DNA from: Xiphophorus maculatus
Taxonomy: Eukaryota; Chordata; Actinopteri; Cyprinodontiformes; Poeciliidae
NCBI RefSeq assembly: GCF_002775205.1
Contig: NC_036453.1
Coordinates: 2,879,103 to 2,943,102 of the forward strand
Direction: 5' to 3'
DNA length: 64,000 nucleotides
Program-made: the position numbers and the translations under genes
Notes under the pieces: generated by a model
Told to the model about the DNA's origin: nothing
What the model saw: the letters and a program-made list of their open reading frames with translations, nothing else
Databases searched by the model: none
Shown here: positions 17,836-58,993 of the stretch, piece after piece
Layout: the number at the start of each line of letters is the position of its first letter
Position numbering within the stretch: position 1 is the stretch's first letter

Positions 17836-20800
17836 ATGGCTTCTTCCGTCGGCTGCCAGCATTATGTACGCAGTTGCCTCTTGAAAGTGAGTAAATTGTA
17901 GAAAAAGATCATTTCTGGTACGCGGAGCAAAGGCGAAACCTCTTGAGTGGAAACGTGGTTGTCTAGTTATTTTCTGTTCTGACATCTCAGCGCTCTCCTG
18001 ACAGCCATTCCAACGTTGCTTGACTATAACAGTGTTATTACATAACGTTTTAGTGACTTATCAGTTATTAAATCGTTTATAATGTCATAAAGTTTCACTG
18101 CAAGCAAATACCTTTAAAGAAGTAATTCATTGCCTCAGATACTGGTGCTAACTGCTACGTTAGCTTAGCAGCCATATGTGCCTCTCTCTTTTTTTTTTTA
18201 CCCAGTTTTACCATCGGATCGTATTTATTCTTGAACACTTTGCTTCATTTCTGTTAGGAGTTTGTTAAAACAACTAGGTTGCTGTTGTTTCCCTGGTGCC
18301 GTGCAGGCATTATACAAGTAAATATGACGTAGTAGCTAGAATAGATTAACTTTACAAAATCAGTAAACAAATCATATGCAAGCTGTCATAAAGTGTGTAT
18401 CATAATCAATCCGAGCAGATAAATTGTTTTAAAGAAGTTGTGTTTTCTGAAGATTTGTAAAGTTATCTTCCCTCTTCCTGGGTATATTTCAGTTGAAACA
18501 AGGAGACTGTTCCGGAAATACATATGTTTCAGCCTGAACTTTGATATTTGTAAACAGTGTTGGTTTAAAAGACCTGCAAGATGCAGTATTGCCATCCATG
18601 AGGACTCTTTAAAACTGATAACATTTTCATGTTAAATTCTAAAATAAAGCAGATGCAAGGAAGCTAAAATGGCCATGTCGTTTCGACGTGGTAAGAAGGT
18701 GAGTGGGAGAAATTTAAAGCTGAGACGGATCCAGTCCAATTGAACACATTTATTCTAAATCTATGGAATTTGATCCCAGTACTTTCCAGGTTTGGATAAG
18801 TGTAGGGAAAGAAAATGGAGAATGGACAAATATTTGAATTTCAAGATGTCGTCAGTCAGTCACATTTGCCTTTGCCTATTGGATACAAGAAACAAGCGAA
18901 AAGACCAACATTAATATTTTGGCCACTCAAGACATCCACAATTGAAAATACACAGACTTCTGTTTTCGTTCTTGTTTTCCATTCAAGACAGTATGTCTTT
19001 AACTGGGCCGAATCGGAGCTTTTAGGTCGTACGGGCAAATCAGTCTGTAAATCCTCAGTGTAGTAACAGGTGGATGTGTTTCCATTCTGCAGGCCCCATG
19101 CTGTGGGAAACTGTACGTGTGTCGGCTCTGCCACGATGCAGAGGAGAACCACCAGATGGACCGCTTCAAAGTCCAGGAGGTTCTGTGCTCCGAGTGTGAA
19201 ACCCTGCAGAAGGTAACGGAGGGGGGTGTATGCTCAGGCACGGCTGTGGCAAAGTGTTTCAGCTAGGAGGCTAGAAAGGAAGTCGAGAGTTCATAATAAT
19301 GAGAATATGTTTAGTTTCTTTTGATGTTATGTTTTTGACAGCAATTATCTTGACAGAAACAAAACGGTTCCCTAAGAATAAAAGTAGTTCATATGTACAT
19401 TGGGCTTGTCAGAGGTTTACATACATCAGTATGAACGCTAGTATATGTGACTTTTAATGATGAATCTGATCAAAGTAGATTCCAGGTTTGGAAAATAGTA
19501 CAACCATCACGGAGGATTACGGCAGGGCTAAGAAAGAAAAAAACATAATTACGACTTAGAATTAAGTCATAATATTGCAAGAACAAAGTCCTAATAATAA
19601 GACAATTAAGCCGTATGACAATGAGGTTGAAAAATACGAAAAGAAACCGTTGGGAAGGATCTTGAAATTAGTTTAGGACTTTTTTTGCATTCCACCCCAG
19701 AAGCAGGTTATCCATCCTCATAGCAGTTTGGCTGACAGACACTAATAGACACGTTGAATGTTATTGTTACAACACAGGAGGGCAAAGAGACTTATTCTTT
19801 TACTTGTTCTCTGAAGGAACATGCGGCATTTTGAATTTCTGTACGATTAACTTTCAGTCAGACGTTTACATACACCCATTTGTTTCTTGTGACTCAAGGA
19901 AATAGATTTGTATCATGATTAGCTCAAGTCATAAAATAAAGGTAATGTGTTGGTTTCTGCTCCTCCAGGCTCAGAAGAACTGTCAGCAGTGTCATGTGCA
20001 GTTTGGGGAGTATTACTGCGATATCTGTCACCTGTTTGACAAGGATAAGAAGCAGTACCACTGTCAGCCTTGTGGGATATGCAGGTGAGTCTTTGCGGGA
20101 ACAGGCAGGAACTCTGTGATGGATTTAGAAACACTCAACAGAAATACAGAATCACTATTTTCTTAATGGATTTGTGATAAACAGGACACTTAAATTTATT
20201 GCGAGATCGCAATCCCACCATATTGTGATGTGAGCAATAAAATAAAACTGTGTTATTGTAACTCTTTAGCTATTTCCTTCCCACATTATACGTTGTGGAG
20301 GTAAAGAGATACAGTCAAATCTGTCAAAAACATTCAACTTAAAAGTTGTGACGCAGACGCTCCAGAAACTCCAGACTTTCAGAGACAAACACTTTGTCTT
20401 TGTCTTTTTCCTTTCGCAGGATCGGGCCCAGAGAGAAATACTTTCACTGTCAGAAGTGCAATTTGTGCTTAGCCCAGGACCTGAGAGGAAACCACAAGGT
20501 GATTGTTATGAATCTACGGCTACACATTTCCTCCCGTTGCCGCTTTGATTTACGGCTTGTCCTCTTCATTTCAGTGTGTTGAGAACGTATCAAGGCAGAA
20601 CTGCCCAGTGTGCATGGAGGTAATAACACACACACACACACACTCGTCTAGTTTTAATGTATATTTTTGTTTACATTTTATTTTTTTTAGATTCACTCTT
20701 TACATCTGAAATGTTTTCTTTGATTAATCAGGATATTCACACATCCCGGATTGGTGCTCACGTTCTTCCTTGTGGCCATCTTTTACACAAGTAAGCCTGG

Positions 20801-23349
20801 TTTTTAGCCCATGTTTCGCCAGCCCTCCTTTTATCAGAAAACATAGTACGCGTCATTACAATGGAAACATCCGTATTACTGTTTATGTTCAGATTCTATG
20901 ATTGCGGCTCTGTCGTGATATTACATTTAGCTTTTGTCTTTTTTCACAGGACCTGCTTTGATGACATGGTCAGAACAGGGTAAGTGGAATGAATCCTTTT
21001 TGTTTCTGTTGACATTAGTTAGATGAAATGTGCTCTTAAGTTACTGCTGTCTACATTCAGCTGTTCATTTAATATCATCAGCAGTTTTTCATTATTCTGG
21101 ATTATCAGGGAGCAATTTTTCCCCTTCACTTCTGTCTAAAGTTAAACTGCCAAACATTGTTGTCCTGTTTGGCTCGAGTTAAAATATCAGACCTGTGAGT
21201 GTGTACTTACAGATCTACTGAAGTGTCACAGTGTACTGAATGCCTGTGTGTGTGTGTGTGGGTGGGTGTGTGTGTGTGTGTTTGTTTCAGCGCGTACCGC
21301 TGCCCTCTCTGCATGCATTCTGCCTGGAACATGGACGAACACTGGGAAATGATGGACAAAGAGATCGCTCAGTCACCAATGCCCGCTGAGTACCAGGGTG
21401 CCACTGTCAAAGTAAGAACTCACTAACTGCATTCAAAGAAGTTTTAGAAAAATGTATCAGTCACGACAGGAAATTATATTTGTCGTTCAGTCTGCCACCT
21501 CACAAAGAGATACTGTGAAGTGGTGCTCTCTACCAATGTTCGCTCTTTCAAAATTTCCCAGCACCTGGATCAGTGTGGGGCAAGGTGTCCGCACACCCTT
21601 AAAGCATCTTAAATTCATAAATTAAAGCCTTAATTTAATAAAAGTCATAAATTAATTTTTTTAATAGTAGGTTTGTCACTAAATACATTAATCCCAGGTC
21701 TTACATTTTGACTAGCAAGGACTGGCTAATCTGGTTTATTCTTCTTCTTTTTTCCCCTCTCTTGCGAGACTTTTCTGTCAGGCAAAAGTTTGAGACATAT
21801 TTATTGTGTTCTATGACTTAAGGAGGTTGAATCTACCTGTAACTAGCTGCTAATATACCCATAGCTGGCCAGGTAGCTATTATGGGTAAGTGCAAGTTCA
21901 TCACCACTTGGCTTGTACGTTTCTGTGTAGATGTAGGTCTTAAATTCAATTCATAGTTGTCTTTGAAAGATCTTCAACAGTCTTAAATCTGAATTGGTTT
22001 TTAAGCTTCCAAGCTTCCGTCTCATAGAGCAGCCCTCCTCGCCCATGACTCGCCCACTCAGCTCCTTCAGACTAGCCAGCAGCAATTAGCAAACACATGA
22101 TGGACCTGAGCATCTGCTGATCTCATTATATGAGCTACTGCCCAGTGAAACGCTGGTAAAAACTTTGTTAAAGGGTTAATAGAGGAGCCATGTTGAGATG
22201 ACTTCTTGAAGGCGGAGTTCCAGAAAGAGCACGAGCTTTTAAAGAGACAGAGGCCCAATCTCAAGGTGTTAAATTACGAAGTCAAATTTCTTTTAAGTCA
22301 TGTTCGATATATGGCATTTTCATAACAAGTGAAGGTAACATAGTTACTTAATTCTTCTATAAAATGGCAGTATGTGCCTTGAAACCACCTAATACTGCCT
22401 GTGGAGGTTCATCCATCTTTCCCCAGTGTTAGTATTCATTTAAATGTTTTCACAAAATATATTTATAATTTCACTCTTTTTGTGGTGTTTATTGCATTAG
22501 GTTGTTTACTATTATGGGTGCACACATTTAGTAAACACCCTTTGTTTGAATCATTAACTTATTTGTTTTGCTGAGTTTGAAGGGCTGGCTGGGGGAGAGG
22601 ACTGGTTGAGAGGCAAACAGGAAGTGGAACAAACCATCAGGCTGCTGGCAGCAGGGGACTTAAAGAACCTGCCTCTCTTGCTACTAATAGCATAACTGCT
22701 AAAACACTTTTGCTGTTAGGTTGTTTTGTTTTTACAGTTGTGTTGTAGTCAAAATGTGTTGGTTTGAATTAGTTATTTATGTTTATGCATTGTTTGTCTT
22801 TGTCTCATCTCCCACCCCTCCTCGTTTGTGTAGGCCAGCCTTTGTGTATAAATTCCCCTGTGTGTTCATTGTGTGAGGTCAGTTTTTTGGTTTGTTATCC
22901 TGAGTTAGGTATGTTATGAGTTAGGTTTTGCTATTTTGAGATTTGATGTTGGAAGTCTTTTGTGAAGAATTTTTGGAAAAATAAATAGAAAATATTTTTT
23001 TTATATATGCCTTTGTCCTTGTGCCTTACTGGTCGGACCACCACACTGCCCCTTTAATAGCCATAACATGACAAAATTGGGTCGAATTCTAAGTGTTTCA
23101 AAGATTGACAGATGTTAAGATGCTTTAACCCCCGTCCTTCTTTTTCTCCAGGTCATTTGTAACGACTGCCAGTCCCACTGCACCGTGCCTTTCCACGTGT
23201 TGGGGATGAAATGCGCTGAATGTGGCTCCTACAACACCGCGCAGGACGGAGGACTCATGCAGCAGCAGCGGCCGCCGCAGCCCTCGGACCTGCACACGGA
23301 GGACGAGCCGGAGCCGCAGGACCAACCCGAATCCCAGACGCCACATTAA
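17836..23349 (+). CDS. rchy1: RCHY1/Pirh2 RING and CHY zinc-finger E3 ubiquitin ligase
   Basis: Nine coding exons encode 272 residues: 17836-17886, 19093-19212, 19969-20084, 20420-20498, 20575-20619, 20732-20790, 20950-20979, 21291-21411, 23152-23349. The order is the RCHY1 hallmark: CHY zinc finger (about 7-76, from CQHYVRSC), CTCHY zinc finger (about 69-126, with YYCDICHLFDKDKKQYHC), RING (about 132-174, CPVCMEDIHTS...RCPLC) and a C-terminal zinc ribbon (ICNDC...MKCAECGSYNTAQ). All paired Cys/His appear present. RCHY1 ubiquitinates p53 and other substrates in nucleus and cytosol. The C-terminus adds an acidic, Pro/Gln-rich tail ending TPH, longer than in human. The start is chosen because MASSVGCQHY leads straight into the CHY finger and splices in phase 0. 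Confidence 0.97.
18669..18700 (+). other. Possible alternative first exon of rchy1
   Basis: Within intron 1, an ATG opens a ten-codon frame (MAMSFRRGKK) that ends exactly at GTGAGT in phase 0. It would splice in frame to exon 2, replacing the first 17 residues, including the first Cys/His of the CHY finger. Chance could produce this; no promoter is evident. Confidence 0.2.
19400..19890. mobile_element. Decayed Tc1/mariner-like terminal repeats
   Basis: In rchy1 intron 2, GTCAGAGGTTTACATACAT near 19408 and CAGTCAGACGTTTACATACA near 19856 resemble the GTTTACATACAC direct repeats of fish Tc1-like (Sleeping Beauty-type) termini. They lie in the same orientation about 450 bases apart with no transposase between, so only a remnant is left. 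Confidence 0.35.
22020..22385 (-). mobile_element. Family 2 MITE copy, inverted, in rchy1 intron 8
   Basis: Reverse-complement similarity to the 7442-7924 element, including AAAATGGCAGTATGTGCC (the inverted partner of its left arm) and the AAGAGACAGAGGCCCAAT region. The ends are eroded and no clean TTAA pair is visible. Confidence 0.55.
22560..23060. other. Unclassified repeat-like stretch in rchy1 intron 8
   Basis: Not similar to flanking intron in composition; it holds a TATAAATT motif (about 22847) followed by an AATAAATAG signal (about 22980). No coding sequence, and I cannot assign a family. Confidence 0.2.
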
Positions 23350-23699: not shown

Positions 23700-25535
23700 T
23701 TGTTGCTTTATCATAACGGCTTGTTAAAAGAAATATTTGCTGTTTTCATCTTTTTCTTCTTGCAGGCATTATTTAAATGCTTGGCTTAAAGCTTTGTTAA
23801 TCCTGCCTAAATCCACTTTTATGAAGATAAAACTCATGTTTTAAAAAAAAAAAAAAAGTAATCTCTACTAGTAGCTTCATCTTTCTTTTATTATTGTTTT
23901 TAAGTGGGTTGTATGAAGTACACATGAGAAGTCATTATCTTACCAGTAAACAAACAGTCATCAGGTCACTTTGTTCGCCAAAACACTCTCGTGGGAATCT
24001 CAGTCGCTGTGTGACTCTCATAGTACGACGACCTTGAATAAAATTGTTACACTTTTTGTTTATTGACACAGAAATGTGTGACATTACAAAACAGCTTTTA
24101 TTCACAGGAAAGAAAGACAAAAAGATGTAGGAGCCGTTTTGCGGCCGACTGATCAGCAGTGTGCAGCAACATGTGAGGGAGGGGCTCTATGTTCCAGACA
24201 GGTGGAGAAAACATTTGCTACTACGAAACAATATTTGGCATTAAATGGTTTTTAAATCCCAAGCATAAAGCGAAAAAATGATGCAATTTAAACCAGAACA
24301 ATGTTAAAACCTGAGTTCTGAAAGCAACCCTATACCAAATGACTCATGCTGTGAGTAATTATATGCACTTGAGCTGCTAGAAACATTTAACAAATTGGCC
24401 CGGAGTCTCATTTCCACAGGTTGAACGCCCCCCACAAAAAATCACAGTCTGAAGGAGTAATTGGGAAAGAAGGATGGTGACTCCATGACCACCAACCGTT
24501 CAGCAGTAGCACGTTTTAGTAGCTATCGCGTCTACATGTAATTGTTTAAGTAAGAAACTATTGACACAAAGTGTAAAAAATAATTCAGTTTTTCTTCATG
24601 TTTCCAGAAACATTTGAGAATTCCTTGGCTTTCCAGTGAGAACTCGTTTTCAGAAATCGATCTCACTGTTGGCAAAGATGCAGACTTCTCATAAATGTTC
24701 AACACAACCCCGCTTAAATCATCTAAACCTGTGTTTGACTTCAAGGTTATTCACTCTTAAACTAAAACTTCCAACAGCTATATTTGCATGTGACAAACCT
24801 GGTGCTGATGGGTCGTAGTTAGACCTGTATTCTTGTTCCCAGTCTGCGGAACATTGTGACAAAAGTTCCAGCTGTCATGTATCCAGATGTTGAGTATTTA
24901 TTGCTTAATATTTAGTCAAGGTAGTCGGTGGACGTGGCTGCTGTGAAAAATTTCCCCGTATATGAGGACATGCTTAACATTTGTAACAACTCGCAGTTAT
25001 GAAGTGTAAGGAAATCTGACCATTAAGCACTACTGTGTTGTACTATTGTATTAATTGAAACATGTAAGTACAAGACGTATTTTTTTTACTCTATAAAACA
25101 TTTGCGGTGTCTTTGTATTGATTTGACTAATAAAGCGGTTCAGTTATGCTATAGATACTGTAATTCCTATGTTTCATTGTGTTTACGTTGCATTCATTAA
25201 CATTAGAATCATTGTAAATAAATTCCCTCTGGTAAACTCGGACACAGCGTTCATAAACAGGGATGTGATACCTCTAGGCATTTATCATATCATTTATCGT
25301 GGTAAGATTCTCGATTTTTCCCCACCGTTTGTTCAATAAAAGAATCAATCAATTTTGGGGGTGAGGGTGAATGATTCAATTCAGTTACAATGTGAAGTTT
25401 TGTAATACAAATTCTTTTTATTTATGTCACCTGGTGCCCTAAAGCCCTACAAATGAGTCTGTTTTTCCAAGAGTTGTATTTGCGTCGATGGGACTGTGAC
25501 ATTCCTTAAAATCAAATAATAAATATTTCTTAATG
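23700..25535. other. Intergenic between convergent genes, no gene seen
   Basis: A+T-rich sequence between the 3' ends of rchy1 (plus) and the SCPP-like gene (minus). Only short chance frames and no clear repeat boundaries are visible. Confidence 0.45.
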
Positions 25536-25608
25536 TCACCTTTATTGTTATCACAGTAGTACCGCTAAAATATTGTGATAAAACTTCAAGTCCATATGGC
25601 CTAATTCC

Positions 25609-26825
25609 TCATATGCTGTCTCCTCGAGGTGGCGCCGGCTCGGCCGTTACGAGCTGCGCGGTGAAACAATCCAAACTGGTAGCAGGGGTGTCTCCGGGGA
25701 TGCTGGAGGGCGTGTCCGTGGAAACCGACAGAGGTGTGGGTGTGAGGACATGCAAAGGAGCGCGTGGCGCGGCTTCCCGCTGGAGGCCCTCGTGTGCGCC
25801 GGTGCCTTTTGGTTCCGTCGTGATTATTGCCACGCCGGCATCCGGAGAGTCGCGTGCTGCGCCGAGGGAGCTGTCCACGTGGAGAGCGGCCTGACAGGGA
25901 CTCTGTGGGATGGGCTGGAGAGGGTCTATGTCTGTGGAGGTCTGTGGGTCCTCAGGCACCGGCGGTGCTCCCGCGTCGGTTGTGGATGGTGAAAGATCGG
26001 AGTCCAGGGGCTCCGTCTGCAGGCCCGTGTCTGTTAGCGCCGGTTGTGAGGGTCCGAACTGGACTTCGGTCTCCTCCGATGACATCGACTCACTGGACTC
26101 TGATGATTTTGAGGAATCGTCTTCCACATGTAGGCAAACCTGTTAAAAAAAAAAAAAGAAAAAAAAAGTTAATTGGCCTATTTATTAATGCTGCAGTATG
26201 TAACTTTTATTTTTTTAAAACAGAAAAAAAAACATATATAATGTCATACAGTGTAAAAAAGTGGCGCTCCTCTACCTTTTGCCTGCGCTCCCGATGCTGA
26301 CTAGAAACAACCAATCAGAGGCAAAAGGCGGGTCTTATTGCTGTCAATCACCCCGCCCCTCCTCTCTTGTGGTACTAGCTTCTCTGTTCATGAATGCTGG
26401 GCTACTTAGCATAGCCACCAATGACATGGAACTGTTTTCCTGTAACTGTAACTTGTTTCTCAACCACTAGCACATTGAACTTCATACACAAGGTTGATTG
26501 ACAGCACTAAGACCCTCCTCATGGCTTTGATTGGTTGTTTTTGACCAGTAGCAGGGCATTTTTGCAGACTGTTATAGTAGATGGAGGAGCTTAATTTATT
26601 TTATTTTATTTTTTCACAGATTGTCTGTCTCAAATTAAACTGACACGACATGGTGACAGTTTAAACAAATATGGTGAAAAAAACCTTTTTGTTTTTAAAT
26701 ATAAAAGTTACATACTGCACCTTTAAGTAGTAAAAGGAAGTCAGAGAAGTAGAGCTACTCACTGGTTTAGATGTCACCAACGTCACCATAAGGGCTGCCC
26801 AAAATGTGGCCCCTGTACCTTTCAT
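25609..26825 (-). CDS. Candidate secreted phosphoprotein (SCPP/SIBLING-like)
   Basis: Two coding exons: 26825-26763 (21 residues, a signal peptide with core ATFWAALMVTLVT) and 26139-25609 (176 residues), joined in phase 0 by GTGAGT...AACAG. A noncoding exon lies upstream (27304) with a TATA box, and AATAAA on the minus strand lies at 25541-25546, about 63 bases past the stop. The 197-residue product starts the mature part with DDSSKSSESSESMSSEE, several Ser-x-Glu sites of the Fam20C kinase type, continues Pro/Thr/Ser/Asp/Glu-rich without domains, and ends PRGDSI. A noncoding first exon, a signal peptide on exon 2, phase-0 introns, an acidic Ser cluster on exon 3 and RGD are traits of secretory calcium-binding phosphoproteins. 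I do not recognise an orthologue; it is not clearly osteopontin. Human RCHY1 lies on 4q21, the chromosome arm that carries the SCPP cluster and ODAPH. A role in mineral or matrix biology is inference. Confidence 0.6.
26185..26726. mobile_element. TTAA-flanked palindromic MITE, family 1 copy B
   Basis: Begins TTAA then TGCTGCAGTATGTAACTTTT and ends with the near-exact inverted partner followed by TTAA (26723-26726). Internal arms AACAACCAATCAGAGGC (about 26306) and TTTGATTGGTTGTTT (about 26526) are inverted copies. It makes up 542 of the 623 bases of the intron that splits the SCPP-like coding region, and its well-kept ends suggest it is fairly young. Confidence 0.88.
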
Positions 26826-27303
26826 TGTCCCCTCTGCTATATTTGAAGAAACAGGTAGAATGTAAGTAGGTGGACGCTTGATATTACAATACAGGTCATC
26901 AGTTTACACCCGCTCATCAACTACATTCATGTCATCTTATTTCTAGGCTCTTGACATATTTGAACCGTTCATATTTCAGGATGAAGCGGTTACCAACATA
27001 TAGACGGTGACACTGTTGTTCCACAAGCTTCCAGTTTATAACGGGTTCAAAATGTTGACGGGTTTTTGGGATGTTCTGGAAAATTCTGACCAACTTCCTT
27101 TCATTTGGTTTCAACTTGTACACAAAACCGGTTTGGGAATTCTTAAACCATATTTGTTTTGTCACCGTACCCTGGAAAAAGACCTATTCAAGCAAATCAT
27201 TCAAATCCCTAAAAGTAAAGACATTCATTCGAATAAGGAATGTAGGTCTCCTAATACATGTTGCACTGTGTCATACAAAAGGTAATCCTCTTTTCAGGCT
27301 TAC

Positions 27304-27352
27304 CTCAGCAGTACCTCCAAGACGATGTGTGCCTCTTCTATGTCCAGAATGA
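27304..27352 (-). other. Noncoding first exon of the SCPP-like gene
   Basis: Minus-strand sequence ends TGCTGAG and is followed by GTAAGCC. It starts about 25-30 bases below a TATA box. The matching acceptor lies just before the ATG (AAATATAG, then CAGAGGGGACA and ATG), near 26836. The transcription start is inferred from TATA spacing. Confidence 0.5.
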
Positions 27353-27376
27353 ACTAAATATTTGAGATGGGCCTGT

Positions 27377-27383
27377 TTTTATA
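27377..27383 (-). promoter_or_regulatory. TATA box of the SCPP-like gene
   Basis: Minus strand reads CCATATAAAAACAGG, a strong TATAAAA, placed about 25-30 bases before the predicted noncoding exon. Confidence 0.5.
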
Positions 27384-29459: not shown

Positions 29460-32400
29460 TCATGTCACCTCTTTCTTCTCTGAAGTTGCCTGGGCATTCT
29501 GTGCACCAGTTGTGGTTTCCACGTTTTTCTCCAGTTCAGACATGCTGGTTTCCACTGTTGCATCCGGTCTCCCTCCTCTGTATTCAGAGGGACACCATTA
29601 AATTTGTGGCACCAAGAATATGTACAATTTAAATTCAGAATAAGTGTAGAAACCTTGAGACATTCTTTTTGAGGACCACTGCCATCACAGCAATAAAAAC
29701 TACGCCACAGAGACCTGCGGCACCATAGATGATGGGGCCCTTCATGCCTTTTGGTGCAATGTCTTGACAAGACACTCCACTGTAGCCCTTTGAACATTTG
29801 CATGTAGTGACCCCATCAATTTTCACACAGTGCCCTTTCCCACTGCAACGATTCTGTCTGCACTCCGCCGCCTCCAGGACCTCATGGTTTTCCTCTACGG
29901 CATTGCCTGGGTTCATCTTTGAGGATGGAGTGTGAGGAGTAGGTGTACTTGGAGTAGAGACCTTTGTTTCCGACTGTTGCTTGGCATCAGCACCTTAACA
30001 AAAGCCAGTTTCAAGCAGCGGTTTAGTGAAATTTGAAGCTAGCTGTACAGCTTACCCATTTTAAAGGTTACATACAGTTTTCATCCGAGTGATCGGCGCA
30101 GTCAGCATGCCCGTCGCAGAATTTCTCAGCTAGCAGGCAGGTTTGGTCCAGACATATTCTACCACCAGCTGAGCAGCTTTGATCAGTGCTGCAGTTTGTG
30201 TCTTTTGCATTGAAGTCATGTGCACATTTGCACGTCCGTCCTGTTGGGGTGGCGAGGCACAGGTGCCAACAGTTGCCATTGTTCGCTGCACACTGGTTGG
30301 TACCTGAAGAGAATGAGACTTGACCTTAGAATTTTAAAGCAGCACCAAATCCCCTTGAGAATTTAGTTGTCACTTACCTGACTGAGTAGAATTGCTGTAG
30401 GCTTTCAAGCCAAGTACTTTTGTGCCCACCTCAAACCATAGTTTTTGCTGCTGATCTTCTCTGTACCAGAGTCTGGTCATATCTGAGGGTAATTGACAGG
30501 CATGCCATTTAGAAATATACCATTTAAATTTTAAAATGTTTGAGGTAGCATGTTCCCTCCAGCAGTCATTGACATTACCACCGACAGTCATCCAGATTGG
30601 CATGTCACCAAGAGCTACGGCAGTCAGCCCATCACCAGTCTCTAGTTCCTTGTATCCAGAGCCATCAGTCTTGACAAGACTGATTTTCCCCATTCCTGTG
30701 AAACATTTGGGTCACTTAAAAAAAAATAAAAAAGGAAAAAAACAACAACTTTATTCTCATGTACTTGTACCTGCGTTAGCCCAGTAGATCGTGTCCCCAG
30801 TACTGGAAAAGACTAGAGACGTGGGTTGAACTGTATCTTTCCACACGACTTTTCGGTTTCCGCCATCCATGTAAGCACATTCTACTGTGGCCTTGCTGCC
30901 AGCATCTTTCAGATTTAAATTGGTAAAGCAAACTTGCCCACTTTTAGGATGAAGGGCAATGGAACCCACTCCAGCAATCCCATCTTTTATTAGAATGGCT
31001 GTGTATGCCCCGGTTTTTGACGTAACCTGCAGTCGGGACTGTTTGTTGCTGCTCCAGTATATATTAAGGGTCACCCAGTCAAGGGCCATGGCAGTGATTT
31101 GGTCATCTAGCAGTTTGAGAATCTGCCCTTTAGCAACCAAGACAGAGTTCCTCAGTTTGAAGGACTTTATTGAAGTTGCGCTGGCATCCGTCAAGACCAG
31201 AGTGTTGTCATGTGCGCTGTAGTCCATGATCTTTGCATCACCTACACCAGGGATTGTTATTGGAAAATGCTCAGGCCAGCCTTTTAACTCTGTTGCCTGT
31301 TGGGCTTGAAAATAGATCTGCAGAAATAAATTAGTTATGCAGGTCATTAAAATCAGTTTCTTGACTGCACTTATGCCACATTAAAGAATTTTGACGTTCC
31401 ACTGGTTCAAGAGTCAATTTGTCTTTAGTTAGAATTTCTGACAACCTTAGCATCTAATGCTAAGGTCTTCAGAGAGCTGCTGACTGAGTTAGCAGGACCA
31501 GAACCGATTTTCCCATATTCCCTTGGTCTTTTAGAAGACTTTGAATAGTGCTACACAAAATAACCCCTTGTGTTCCATCTTACAGGCAACCTAGTCACCA
31601 TGCTTTTCTGCATTCTCCTTCATACTTTTAGAGCTAGGCATAGAAAATATAAAGTCTGAATTTAAAGCAACTTCACAACTGACAGCTAGAGCAAACCTTT
31701 GTGACAGTAGGTGGCGACAACAGCAGCAGGAATGTTGATTTGGGCAGACTAGAACAGAGCAGACCATCTTCAGCCAGAGACAGGCCACTGGGACACTTGC
31801 ACACAGCCTTGCGTCTTGGTGCCAAAACGCACATGTGGGAACAGGCCATCTTCTTGCATGGGCTCTCAGTGTCCATCTGCATTATTGGATGTATGATCTA
31901 AAAATTGGGAAATCAGAAACTGGTTATCAGCAAGCCAAGGTTTGCACTTGACAGTAGAAGACATTGCAGCAGAATACTACTGTAAAAAGTTAGGATCTTC
32001 TATAACATCAGATTCAGCTCAAGCATGCATTTACAGTTCTAAATTAGACAAAATTCACCTTAATAGCAAAAGGTTGGCCAGGTCTCTTCAGGATAACCTG
32101 CCTGTTCCTCCCAGAGAGTTTGTCAACAGCTTGCACCACTCTCCTCTTTGCATCAGACCAGTAAAGCAAGTCATTGAATACAGCCACAGAAAAGGGATTG
32201 GTAGTCTCCTTCAGCTGGAAAATCTGAAAGAGGATCAAGTGCTTTAAACTGATGAACTTTGTTGGGTTACTTTATTGGGGAGGCTTTCAAAGCCAGTTAA
32301 TCCTGAGAAAACTTTTGGCTTCATTTACCTTCACATTATCACCGTCTAGCGTGGAAGACCCAATTGCATTCAGTCGTTCATCTGTCCAGAAAACTCTTTC

Positions 32401-35400
32401 TGAAAGGACGTCTACTGTAATGCCACCTGGCCAGCCCAAACTGGTGTTCACGATTGCCTTCCTCTCAGACCCATCCATGCCAGCTCGTTCAATCTTAACC
32501 AAGTTGCCAATTTCTGTCCAAAACATCAGCCTAAGAGAGGATAAGTATGAATGTCAGCTCGGTACAGTTTTTAATTTTAAGTTTCTTTTTTTTAAGCCAA
32601 CCCTTTTTGTGGTAGTAGGGCCAGAGAGCGAGGCTGGTCCAACTCTTCATCCAGGATGATGCTTTGGTCCAGTGACTTGACAGGTGCTTTTGTGAGGCTG
32701 ATGGCAACAATCTGACTTTTTACACCATCAATCCAGTACAGGTTCCTTGCAAGCCAATCTACAGCTACAGAATCTGCCCGGACACCTTTAAGAGGAGCAT
32801 TTAGATTATGCTTTAAACTGATTCAGATGTCCGTAAAAGTGTTTTGCCACCCCCAACCTTTAGTGAGAATTCCTGTAGTCTTCTGGTCCATAGAAGACCA
32901 CCTGATCGTTTCAGTGTCCACACCAACCCAGAAGACCTTCTGGTCCCGCCAGTCATAGTCTATAGACAAGATTGCCCTTTTGGCAGATGAAGACAAGACA
33001 TCTAGGCTTCCAGTGCGCAAACCATACATGTACAACTCTGTCTGGACAGATGCCAACAGGAACGGTTCGCCTATGAAGAGATTGCAACAATATACACGGT
33101 ATAAGGAGCAAATTACAATGTGTAAACTTTTTGAATGTACACAAGGTTTCAGAAGATAAGTTTGGGACAAACTCCTCTTGTAGACTTTAAGAGTTCAAGA
33201 TACAGCAACTGTTGAGAAAACAGTTCACCTTATTCCTCCCCCCCGAATGTTTGGATGCTTTACCTGTGATTTTGCATTGGTATTCATCTGCCTCCATTAT
33301 AAATCCTGGCTGGCACTCACACTTGTATGACCCAGCTGCATTAATACACAGATGACTGCACACACTTTGTGCCTGGTCGTCACACTCATCTACATCAGCG
33401 CATGTTTGGCCGTCTTCCATCAGCCTGTACCCTGCTGTGCATCGACAGCGCTATAAATAGAATACAAGATTCACATAAAGTCAATCCACTGCTGTACAGT
33501 TTGATGTCTTTTCACCGCTTTGGTTTACACATATTAAGTGGCCCCTCACCGGTCCCTGGGGTGTGCTGTGGCAGCCCTGTGTACAGCGGTCAGCTGTAGT
33601 GCAGGCCATCTGGCAGCTGCCCCCCTCATCTGAACCATCTGCACAGTTAGTAATGCCATTACAGACTAGGACTGGATCCAGACACTCCTGGCTGCCACAC
33701 TGGAACTCATGAGGGAGGCATGTTCCCATGCCACCTGGGAAGTTTATGTTTTACAAAAAAAAAAGTCAGAATTCTAGGAACTAAAAGCACAATCATTTAA
33801 AGTCTCTGGTCATCTATTATGTAAAGCAAACTATGCATTATGAATTTTTTTCAATTACAGTTAAATATGCATATACTCACATTCCGTCTCATCACTACCA
33901 TCGTCACAGTCTTTAATCTTATCACATCTCCAGACTGTAGGAATACACTGGGTCTTTGATTTACAAGACCACTGGAAGGCACCACAGCTGACTGGTGTCG
34001 CAGGGCAATCCTACAGTAGAAGGATATCATCATGCTAGAGTCCTTGTGCAACTCCAGAGTGAGGAGAGAAAGTGCATTAACCAGCACCTTTTCATCCGAG
34101 CCATCTTTGCAGTCCTGGTCTCCATCACAGAGCCACTCCTGCACCAAGCACTCCTTGCTGTGAGGACAGCGATGTTTGGTTGTGCAGACCAGTGGCTTGG
34201 TGCAGCCGTCCTCATCCGAGCGATCCCAGCAGTCAGGGTGACCATCACAATGCATTGAGGCCAAAACACACTGGCCACTGAGGCACTTAAACTCTGTAGA
34301 GCTGCACTGCACATCAGCTACAGGAGGGCCATAGCATGTTAGAGCACTGCGAAGGAGCAGCGACACAAGTTGTGAGGTCGTGCAAGCATACCACAGGTTG
34401 CCTCGTCACTGCTGTCGCTGCAGTCCCGCTCCCCGTCACACAGGAAACTGTCGGGGACGCAGCGGCTGTTTTCGTCACACAGATGAGCGCAACCCTCCAT
34501 GCGCTTGGCACAGTCAAGTTCGTCAGAGCGGTCCTGGCATTGTGGCTCGCCGTCGCACACTTTACTTCTCTCAATACATTTTCTTCCATGGGCGCATTGG
34601 AACTGGTCTGTAGCAGGATTATAAAGTCATTCAGACAAAAGAGTACCAAAATATGAATGCAAGGTGTAGCGGTCACCACTACAAGATGCCTTTCTGCAAT
34701 GGTGGTATAGTAACCGCCTATCCCACTAGTTGTGGCTTAAGAGTTTACTTGAAGCAGATTATAGCCAGTTCAGGTCACCTACCAGTTCCACATTCTGAGA
34801 TACAATCTTCCTCATCTGAGCCATCTCTGCAGTCTGGTTCTCCGTCACAGACATGATTGTAATGGACACAGTCTGACTTGTCTTTGCACATCTGGGAGCC
34901 CAAACCACATCTGAGGGGACGAGACTGACCGGAAGGGGCCGGTGTAGGTCCTGCAATTGTTCCAGCTTCCTCTTGGTCCTCTGAAAACCATGCAACACAC
35001 ACTATTGAAGATGAAAACTGCCCACCCTAGAGTCAAAGATCAAAACAGAAGCCACATACCACAGTTTGCCTCATCGGTGCCATCCAGACAGTCCTTCTCT
35101 CCATCACAGATGAAGTTTGCAGGCAGGCAGTGGCTCTTCTCATCACAGTGGTGAGCGCAGTCTTCAGGGTGTTTCCGGCATTGCTGTTCATCCGAGCGGT
35201 CCTGACACTGAGGTACACCATCACATACCTGATCTTTGTCTATACACTTCTTACCATGGGCACACTGGAACTGGTCTGTTTGGAAACAGGCATTTGGTTG
35301 AACTTCAGGCCACATACACACTTTTAAAAAATTGCAATAAGACTTCACTGAAAGCGTTATGGCAACCCACATTTGGCCAGCAATATAGCCATGTAGGATG

Positions 35401-36007
35401 TTTGTAGATGCACAAATTTTAGCAAAAAATAAGTTACATTGCAAAAAAGGAAAGCTACATAATTTCAAGTCAATACTGAGCAGTAGCTCTCCTCCACCAC
35501 CTTGAAAACAAAAAAATATGAATGTGTCAAGTTTAGTTAATTGAGAAACTTGTGAACAGTACATAGTTCATTTCATTCATGATACTAGGAATACAAGTTA
35601 ATGTTAATCTGAGCTCAATTTATGGGCCAAGTTCACACAATCTTGAGCCCAGCTCTACATGTCAAATTCCAGTATCAGCAAGTTTTTGCCTGGTGTAAAG
35701 AAGGCTACACTCCCAGTTAGCACTTCCAGTCATACCAGCACTGCATCCTGCTTCACAGTTCTGTTCATCAGAACCATCCTTGCAGTCCTCCTCTCCATCA
35801 CACACATGGTTGTAGGAAATACATTCTAAGCCATCCTTGCATAGACTATATCCCATTCTGCAACGATTAAGACAGCTTCCAGCTGGGGAAGAGAAGAAAC
35901 AAAATCATGAACATATAAACACACACCCAAGTTGTGGGGGGAAATGGTTGCTTACCTTGTAAAAACAGTGCCAGCAAGCCCACACAAAGCCATAACTGAC
36001 CACCCAT
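29460..36007 (-). CDS. lrp13: Lrp13-like LDL-receptor family member (putative vitellogenin/lipoprotein receptor)
   Basis: Twenty exons encode about 1,326 residues: 36007-35956, 35882-35736, 35275-35060, 34980-34783, 34607-34392, 34317-34088, 34010-33881, 33734-33550, 33450-33264, 33070-32858, 32785-32602, 32530-32329, 32223-32059, 31897-31697, 31317-30771, 30695-30579, 30482-30378, 30303-30076, 29993-29654, 29577-29460. Order: signal peptide ([14 protein letters not shown]), ten LDLa repeats with CDGxxDCxDxSDE calcium cages, two EGF-like modules including one calcium-binding (DVDECDD), a YWTD propeller ([26 protein letters not shown]), EGF, a second divergent propeller, EGF, one more LDLa, a Thr/Ser/Pro stalk, EGF, a membrane helix ([19 protein letters not shown]) and a short tail. 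Two propellers and split LDLa blocks exclude LDLR, VLDLR and LRP8 and fit the fish ovary receptor Lrp13; that identity is from memory of the architecture. A TATA box lies about 55 bases upstream of the ATG. Confidence 0.8.
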
Positions 36008-36059
36008 TGCCACAGGCAAGTCGAAATGAACCAGAAGCCAGGATGTTCTGGCCAGGCAG

Positions 36060-58464: not shown

Positions 58465-58993
58465 TTAAAGCTGCAGTATGTAACTTTTATTATTTTTAAA
58501 TATGTTTTGACCGGAGAGTATTAGACCCGACAGATGATCTGGAAAAAAAAACTGAGCTCCTCTGCCTGTTCTCAGTGCTCTCAGTGCACATGGCAGAAAC
58601 AACCAATCAGAGCCAGGAGGAGGGTCTTAGTGCTGTCAATCACTCTCATGTAGCCTGGCCCGAATGTTCAGGTTAGTTAGTGTGACCGCCGATGACGGCA
58701 GATAAACAGTTTCTCTGGATTGGTAAGTTGTTTTTCCACCATTAGCACATTGTTAAATACACAAACATGATTGACGACGCTAAGACCGTCCTCTTGCCTC
58801 TGATTGGTTGTTTCTGACCCAGAGCTGTGTATTTCTTCAGACAGCAATAGCATCACGAGGAGATGGAGAAGCTTGATTTTTTTATTTTTTCATAGATTAT
58901 CTGTCTGATAGCATTCTGTAACAATATGGTGACACGTTCAACAACTATGGAAAAGACATATATTTGTAAAAGTTATGTGTACTGCAGCTTTAT
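58465..58993. mobile_element. TTAA-flanked palindromic MITE, family 1 copy C
   Basis: Begins TTAAAGCTGCAGTATGTAAC and ends GTGTACTGCAGCT followed by TTAT, a one-base change from TTAA. Inner inverted arms AACAACCAATCAGAGCCAGG (about 58597) and CTCTGATTGGTTGTTTCTG (about 58798) match copies A and B. Confidence 0.82.

What the first reader, a model, noticed from the sequence alone, without database searches (positions are those of the whole stretch)
25541..27383. Undescribed SCPP/SIBLING-like gene beside rchy1
Seen: TATAAAA, a noncoding exon with a GTAAGC donor, a signal-peptide exon, a phase-0 intron, a mature start packed with Ser-x-Glu sites, a disordered acidic body, and PRGDSI at the extreme C-terminus, then AATAAA 63 bases past the stop. 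Known: this exon plan and chemistry are shared by secretory calcium-binding phosphoproteins, and RGD by the SIBLING members (osteopontin, BSP, DMP1, MEPE). Inference: a lineage-specific member outside the usual scpp cluster. Together these make a whole small gene that homology-based annotation could easily miss.
Basis: partly seen in the sequence, partly recalled or inferred. Interest (0 to 1): 0.8.

Follow-up and report, generated by a model that had tools for sequence, protein, structure and literature searches.

The report
Fish scale/bone phosphoprotein gene, probably gsp37
A small, real fish gene encodes a secreted, probably disordered protein with likely phosphorylation sites at one end and a cell-binding RGD tag at the other; it fits the known family that builds bone, teeth and scales and is most likely the already named scale gene gsp37, carried in databases under misleading names.

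Summary
The gene is real: the listed elements are in the DNA and its frame is kept in 62 homologous proteins, nearest Xiphophorus hellerii at 97%. RGD lies within the last six residues in 59 of 63 sequences. The plan is that of SCPP genes: signal exon ending in Lys-Pro, phase-0 intron, Ser-x-Glu cluster, no predicted fold. 'Missed by annotation' fails: 34 named species have protein models, under names such as mucin-2-like. 'Outside the usual scpp cluster' fails too: in gar, rchy1 and smad2 flank spp1. In this genome pum3, kcnv2 and an LDLR-type gene, partners of spp1 in other teleosts, lie on contig C8, while rchy1, this gene, lrp13 and smad2 lie on C11. So the gene sits at the other genome-duplication copy of the osteopontin locus, which I read as SCPP cluster IIb. 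Best name: gsp37, inferred; no gsp37 sequence, spp1 locus or RNA-seq was seen. Rivals: scpp8, a spp1 ohnolog, an unnamed SCPP. The conserved terminal RGD is the part I found no report of.

The parts
27377..27383 (-). TATA box TATAAAA
   Evidence: sequence only
27304..27353 (-). putative non-coding exon 1; 5' end assumed about 30 nt below the TATA box; donor GTAAGC follows 27304
   Evidence: not confirmed by transcripts
26763..26836 (-). exon 2: 11 nt 5'UTR, ATG 26825-26823, signal peptide plus the residues Lys-Pro
   Evidence: homologs: 34 of 62 models include xKP followed by V/I/L/M (picked by that pattern)
26140..26762 (-). intron 2, phase 0, 623 nt, GT...AG
   Evidence: eight unspliced homolog frames read Lys-Gln right before exon 3, and P0032 reads through a whole 87-nt intron
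26185..26726 (.). 542-bp MITE-like insertion with TTAA ends and 35-nt inverted arms inside intron 2; without it the intron is 81 nt
25609..26139 (-). coding part of exon 3: the rest of the mature protein, stop at 25611-25609
26068..26115 (-). codons of the Ser-x-Glu cluster SSKSSESSESMSSEET
25615..25626 (-). codons of RGDS, followed only by Ile and the stop
25541..25546 (-). AATAAA polyadenylation signal 63 bases past the stop
19051..23349 (+). rchy1 exons (CHY zinc finger, zinc ribbon); the gene starts further upstream
   Evidence: Pfam PF05495, PF14599; gene name by recognition
29635..36011 (-). lrp13-like gene: N-terminal LDLa repeats, an extra C-terminal LDLa, EGF, a membrane segment seen by eye
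   Evidence: name from the domain plan given in PMC9935665
39714..45395 (+). smad2 exons seen (MH1, MH2)
   Evidence: smad2 rather than smad3 by recognition

Best explanation
This is an SCPP gene at the teleost-genome-duplication copy of the osteopontin (spp1) locus, which I read as cluster IIb, and most likely the percomorph ortholog of gsp37, a scale-matrix protein gene. Mechanism (inferred): the protein is secreted; a FAM20C-type kinase phosphorylates the Ser-x-Glu cluster at the start of the mature chain; that end binds calcium or calcium phosphate in the matrix of scales and probably bone; the disordered Pro/Thr-rich middle is a flexible spacer; the C-terminal PPRGDSI engages integrins on scale or bone cells, so that the molecule tethers cells to mineral. 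Shown: gene structure, conservation, predicted disorder, position and single copy. Inferred: phosphorylation, mineral binding, integrin binding, tissue, and the name gsp37.
For: SCPP plan: phase-0 intron and signal exon ending in Lys-Pro; virtually all SCPP introns are phase 0 (PMC6732285, passage). RGDS mean column identity 0.96 against 0.53 for residues 46-175 in 27 sequences. Position: gar lists smad2, cldn23a, rchy1 on one side of spp1 and sh3bp2, vldlr, kcnv2a, pum3 on the other (PMC8042750, passage). PMC9935665 (section 17) gives spp1-sh3bp2-vldlr-kcnv2a-pum3 in eel, zebrafish and tilapia, and rchy1 beside lrp13 in eel, zebrafish and medaka. In this genome pum3, a kcnv2-like channel and an LDLR-type YWTD cluster (3.16 Mb) are on C8, the window on C11. 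Kawasaki 2026 (PMC13367325, main text parts 1-4 of 6) puts spp1 and scpp8 in IIa and calls gsp37 and scpp8 co-orthologs of scpplpq14, from which I deduce gsp37 in IIb. Zig-zag eel, mangrove killifish and sea bass, described there with gsp37, carry this gene; none of its named gsp37 losers is among the 34 named species (common names matched from recall).
Against: No gsp37 sequence was compared; none of the 35 named hits is called gsp37, and none is an otocephalan, cod or pike, which have gsp37 (27 hits carry no species). Ocean sunfish, said to have gsp37, gave no named hit. Table 1 contents, Fig. S1 and Table S1 of the paper were not seen. spp1 itself was not located: C8:2893001-2963000 around pum3 holds no SCPP-like RGD frame and no LDLa repeat, so the expected vldlr-spp1 neighbours are not right there; the YWTD cluster is about 220 kb off. 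Composition is borderline: P+Q over 20% in 31 of 62 homologs, acidic share over 25% in 0 of 62 (limits from PMC5713400). No expression data.
Confidence: 0.7

Rival explanations
1. It is scpp8, the other proposed co-ortholog of scpplpq14, which stands beside spp1 in cluster IIa and is a zebrafish neutrophil marker.
For: Same cluster-II ancestry; scpp8 occurs in most teleosts (PMC13367325); zebrafish neutrophil expression (PMC11505477, passages).
Against: scpp8 is adjacent to spp1 in most teleosts; partners of the spp1 locus (pum3, kcnv2, an LDLR-type gene) lie on another contig here, and no second RGD[S/T] frame but one of 8 residues is in the window. scpp8 is reported in scaleless syngnathids and catfish (an older paper had it absent in channel catfish); none of these is among the named hits.
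Confidence: 0.1
2. It is the ohnolog of osteopontin itself (a second spp1), shrunken but keeping signal exon, Ser-x-Glu cluster and RGD.
For: It stands at the duplicate of the spp1 locus and carries RGDS plus an N-terminal Ser-x-Glu cluster.
Against: No PF00865 match in the 28 of 62 homologs scanned; no named hit is an osteopontin (one search scored only 7991 best-sharing candidates). PF00865 also found nothing in the own genome, but nothing in the 14 controls either, so that result is uninformative. Osteopontin has RGD inside the chain (recalled). spp1 is reported only in cluster IIa in 63 teleosts.
Confidence: 0.08
3. A percomorph-specific SCPP at cluster IIb that the surveys have not named.
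For: The 34 named species all appear to be percomorphs (lineage checked by tool for 4); a C-terminal consensus search added 3 proteins, none from outside as far as named.
Against: A 2026 hand survey of 63 teleosts with RNA-seq reports gsp37 in percomorphs; fast-evolving SCPPs are expected to escape word-based searches.
Confidence: 0.1
4. Not an SCPP: an ordinary mucin-like secreted protein, or the fish ODAPH or PARM1 neighbour of RCHY1.
For: Databases call it mucin-2-like; RCHY1 lies near PARM1 and ODAPH in human (recalled).
Against: ODAPH introns are phase 1 (PMC7807025, passage), this one is phase 0; no membrane segment as PARM1 has (recalled); Pfam Mucin matched 1 of 29 scanned at E 0.36; Ser-x-Glu and RGD are among the conserved parts.
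Confidence: 0.02

Closest known systems
gsp37 (goldfish scale protein 37), teleost SCPP, cluster IIb by my deduction
   Same: Single SCPP at the duplicate of the spp1 locus; overlapping species pattern; expected in scaled percomorphs
   Different: No sequence compared; whether goldfish GSP37 ends in RGD is unknown to me, and RGD does not occur in the main text of PMC13367325
spp1 / osteopontin (SIBLING)
   Same: Secreted, acidic, Ser-x-Glu cluster soon after the start of the mature chain, RGDS, phase-0 intron (osteopontin features recalled)
   Different: No match to the Pfam family in the homologs scanned; RGD at the last residues; other locus; only two coding exons
scpp8
   Same: Proposed sister of gsp37 after the genome duplication
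   Different: Adjacent to spp1 in cluster IIa in most teleosts; reported in scaleless fish; neutrophil marker in zebrafish
ODAPH (C4orf26)
   Same: Small secreted phosphoprotein with Ser-Ser-Glu-Glu (PMC7807025); near RCHY1 in human (recalled)
   Different: Phase-1 introns; stated not to be an SCPP

Membership tests
SCPP gene family | all or virtually all introns in phase 0 | tested here: met
   Intron 2 phase 0 in the window; eight unspliced homolog frames agree. Intron 1 lies in the 5'UTR and has no phase. Rule from PMC6732285 and PMC7807025 passages.
SCPP gene family | exon 2 holds the signal peptide and ends about two residues into the mature protein (rule recalled) | tested here: met
   Window...VTS|KP then the intron. 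34 of 62 homologs include xKP[VIML], a set picked by that pattern; 7 more are unspliced, 21 start inside exon 3 or differ upstream. Exon ends in homologs are inferred; cleavage judged by eye with the -3,-1 rule.
SCPP gene family | Ser-x-Glu phosphorylation sites in the N-terminal mature part | tested here: met
   SSEE in 48 of 62 homologs, several others lacking the N-terminus; both flatfish have a variant. Phosphorylation itself not testable here.
SCPP gene family | composition: acidic class >25% E, D and phospho-Ser, or P/Q class >20% (PMC5713400) | tested here: inconclusive
   Query 18% and 19%; P+Q above 20% in 31 of 62, acidic above 25% in 0 of 62.
SCPP gene family | location in an SCPP cluster region near sparcl1 or spp1 | tested here: met
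   rchy1, lrp13, smad2 neighbours against gar and teleost orders and the C8 partners in the own genome; the tie to cluster IIb is a deduction.
gsp37 | sequence or exon homology to goldfish or zebrafish gsp37 | not testable with these tools
   No gsp37 sequence reached by three protein searches; supplements not open.
gsp37 | present in scaled and absent in scaleless teleosts | tested here: inconclusive
   3 of the 4 percomorphs I saw named with it are hit (not ocean sunfish); no named loser is hit; absence of a hit is weak evidence.
gsp37 | scale expression | not tested
   No transcript data held.
SIBLING / osteopontin | sequence match to osteopontin | tested here: not met
   No PF00865 match at E up to 10 in 28 of 62 homologs; HMMER filters drop most weak matches.
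SIBLING / osteopontin | RGD integrin motif in a secreted acidic phosphoprotein | tested here: met
   RGD within the last six residues in 59 of 63; position differs from osteopontin.
ODAPH | phase-1 introns | tested here: not met
   Intron 2 is phase 0.

The most novel reading that the evidence does not exclude
Both copies of the osteopontin locus left by the teleost genome duplication kept an RGD-bearing, Ser-x-Glu phosphoprotein: osteopontin for bone on one, and on the other this terminal-RGD protein for the scale. It would be a scale cell-to-mineral linker with the integrin tag at the free end, either gained in percomorph gsp37 or kept from a spp1 ohnolog.
Probability: 0.3. Interest if true: 0.5.

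Novelty: new member of a known kind. Interest (0 to 1): 0.3.

Why it matters
It gives a likely identity to a gene carried in public databases as mucin-2-like, coagulation factor V-like and flocculation protein-like, and supplies conserved motifs (SSEE, EDPQTSTD, CFTFQF, PPRGDSI) for finding it. PMC13367325 names gsp37 as one of two genes whose loss goes with scale loss in teleosts; if this gene is gsp37, its near-invariant terminal RGD gives a concrete, testable idea of what the product does where cells meet mineral.

Tried and rejected
Osteopontin: a Pfam scan of 28 homologs plus the window's 21-aa exon 2 gave no PF00865 match, the best rows being unrelated at E 0.049 or worse; the own-genome search with PF00865 rang nowhere, controls included, and says nothing. 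ODAPH: rejected on intron phase. A lone mucin: no support. Paralogs: none in the own genome at E below 0.76; the weakest match, L003, looked like chance. Further SCPP genes: an RGD[S/T] scan of the window found only an 8-residue frame; the dense Ser-x-Asp/Glu scan in the same call was too strict to find even this gene and is void. 200 kb of C11 left of the window hold six RGD[S/T] frames of 25 aa or more, none SCPP-like by eye; the LDLa pattern used there failed its control on lrp13, a second pattern found lrp13 and then nothing in that flank nor in C8:2893001-2963000. The C11 flank to the right of the window was not read. Plus-strand open frames over exon 3 (up to 158 aa) are GC-rich antisense frames; the homologs read the minus frame. 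NCBIfam gave 2 matches in 27 members, E 0.002 and 0.12, to bacterial families. AlphaFold2 gave no fold beyond the signal helix, so no fold search was run. sh3bp2, the next marker towards spp1, was sought by its SH2 domain, but the request did not complete (six calls between 131 and 138).

Full report
What was checked. The spliced product has 197 residues.

Is it a gene? Yes. A search with the 197-aa protein found 28 proteins at E up to 0.001 among 274 candidates; a profile of 20 sequences found 59 at E up to 10 among 7991 scored, a capped list; a 65-residue C-terminal consensus found 30 among 33. Together these are 62 proteins: 35 from 34 named species, 27 without a species name. The nearest is Xiphophorus hellerii (97%), so the window is from Xiphophorus or a very close fish. 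In the own genome (704 Mb, window at G000:C11:2879103-2943102) the coding exon is single-copy; the next match has E 0.76. I checked the lineage of four species by tool, all Percomorphaceae; the rest I place there from my own knowledge. A tree of 27 named sequences joins the two Channa, the two flatfishes, the two groupers, Pampus with Scomber, Siniperca with Micropterus, and the five Cyprinodontiformes, as vertical descent predicts; 9 of 24 inner branches are well supported and 10 are open, and the Ovalentaria do not come out as one clade.

What is conserved. In the 27-sequence alignment the invariant columns are K20, P21, S36, S42, E44, D91, R192, G193 and D194. Mean column identity is 0.70 for the mature start, 0.82 for EDPQTSTD, 0.70 for the last 21 residues and 0.96 for RGDS, against 0.53 over residues 46-175, a stretch that includes EDPQTSTD. 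RGD lies within the last six residues in 59 of 63 sequences, query included. Of the other four, P0059 has RGD followed by extra residues, and P0044, P0051 and P0055 have partial or out-of-frame ends. Selection at the DNA level was not tested, because no homologous DNA was fetched.

Gene plan. In the window the signal exon ends in Ser-Lys-Pro and the next exon begins with Val, at a phase-0 junction. Of 62 homologs, 34 contain a residue-Lys-Pro followed by V, I, L or M in the first 70 residues; these were picked by that pattern. Seven more begin in an unspliced frame with Lys-Gln right before exon 3, as an in-frame CAG acceptor would read, and 21 begin inside exon 3 or differ upstream. P0032 belongs to both kinds and reads through a whole 87-nt intron. 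The window's intron is 623 nt, 542 of which are a TTAA-ended insertion with inverted arms, leaving 81 nt. This is the SCPP plan: virtually all SCPP introns are phase 0 (PMC6732285, passage), and ODAPH was excluded from the family for phase-1 introns (PMC7807025, passage). Composition is at the edge of both SCPP classes: P+Q above 20% in 31 of 62 homologs, the acidic share above 25% in none (limits in PMC5713400, passage). AlphaFold2 on the swordtail ortholog shows no structure beyond the signal helix.

Where it is. The order in the window is an RRM gene that looks like tia1 (minus), rchy1 (plus), this gene (minus), an lrp13-like receptor (minus), smad2 (plus) (tia1, lrp13 and smad2 named by recognition). 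In spotted gar the genes listed on the 5' side of spp1 include smad2, cldn23a and rchy1, and those on the 3' side sh3bp2, vldlr, kcnv2a and pum3 (PMC8042750, passage; that the list is in map order is my reading). PMC9935665 (section 17) gives spp1, sh3bp2, vldlr, kcnv2a and pum3 together in eel, zebrafish and tilapia, and rchy1 beside lrp13 in eel, zebrafish and medaka, with smad2 and kcnv2b in the figure's legend; it does not say in words that the two are on different chromosomes. So I looked in the own genome: pum3 is at C8:2932381-2933348 with a kcnv2-like channel beside it, and an LDLR-type YWTD cluster is at C8:3160009-3161323, while lrp13 is at C11:2911512. The two partner sets are thus on different contigs. 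The vldlr identity of the C8 cluster is an inference, spp1 itself was not found, and the 70 kb read around pum3 hold neither spp1-like nor LDLa frames, so the arrangement there is looser than in the published species. I conclude that the window is the genome-duplication copy of the spp1 locus. A parrotfish paper names rchy1 and idua in the legend of its map of scpp genes (PMC10932694, legend).

Which SCPP. Kawasaki 2026 (PMC13367325; main text parts 1-4 of 6; table contents and supplements not seen) puts spp1 in cluster IIa, with scpp8 adjacent in most teleosts, and calls scpp8 and gsp37 co-orthologs of one gar gene. Cluster-IIb genes scpp12-14 are reported together only in five otocephalans and two euteleosts (scpp13 alone in denticle herring). 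A solitary SCPP at the other copy in a percomorph is therefore best read as gsp37; that gsp37 is in IIb is my deduction. The species pattern fits: zig-zag eel, mangrove killifish and sea bass are described with gsp37 and carry this gene (P0021, P0005, P0031; common names matched from recall). None of the percomorphs named as lacking it (sharksucker, frogfish, torafugu, mandarin dragonet, syngnathids, swamp eel, clingfish, sticklebacks) is among the named hits. Against it: ocean sunfish, described with gsp37, gave no named hit; no named hit is a cod, pike or otocephalan; no gsp37 sequence was seen. Absence of hits is weak, since SCPP genes evolve fast and the search needs shared five-residue words. 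I put gsp37 at about 0.7 and SCPP membership at about 0.9.

How it likely works. Shown: a chain with a signal peptide, no predicted fold, a conserved Ser-x-Glu cluster at its start and a near-invariant RGD at its end. Inferred: phosphorylation by a FAM20C-type kinase, binding of that end to calcium phosphate, a flexible spacer, and integrin binding at the free end, which together would tether scale or bone cells to mineral. GSP37 is reported as a goldfish scale-matrix protein (PMC4895719, passages), and sea bass gsp37 has high scale RNA-seq coverage (PMC13367325). In the held library I found no statement that gsp37 carries RGD: the word is absent from the main text of PMC13367325, and searches for gsp37 and for GSP-37 with goldfish and scale listed three and two papers, not all read for this. 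The original goldfish paper was not seen.

Verdict. The terminal RGD at the duplicate of the osteopontin locus is what deserves a follow-up.

Noticed in passing
window 26185-26726: A 542-bp MITE-like element with TTAA ends and 35-nt inverted arms (86% complementary) makes up most of intron 2; a third copy of its end motif lies at 58471-58489.
   Followed up: partly
P0001-P0062: Automatic names of this one family include mucin-2-like, mucin-6-like, coagulation factor V-like, FLO11-like, vegetative cell wall protein gp1, dentin sialophosphoprotein-like and LRP2; the last, in Lates, may come from the neighbouring lrp13 gene.
   Followed up: no
P0014, P0016: Cololabis and Brachyistius orthologs carry expanded in-frame tandem repeats in the middle, as expected of a disordered spacer.
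   Followed up: no
P0055-P0057: Toothfish (Dissostichus) models differ in length, one looks like two copies in tandem and is out of frame at its end; possible local duplication or decay. P0059, without a species name, is similar.
   Followed up: no
window 25523-26300, + strand: Three overlapping antisense open frames of 123-158 aa over the GC-rich exon 3; no sign of coding.
   Followed up: partly
G000:C8:2951000-2963000 (L031, L032): NLR-type (NACHT, SPRY-like) and retroelement frames next to the kcnv2-like gene, which may have pushed the vldlr-spp1 partners apart in this lineage; judged by eye from open frames.
   Followed up: no
zebrafish scpp8 literature (PMC11505477): The proposed sister gene scpp8 is listed as a neutrophil marker in zebrafish kidney, an unexpected use for a mineralisation-family gene.
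   Followed up: no
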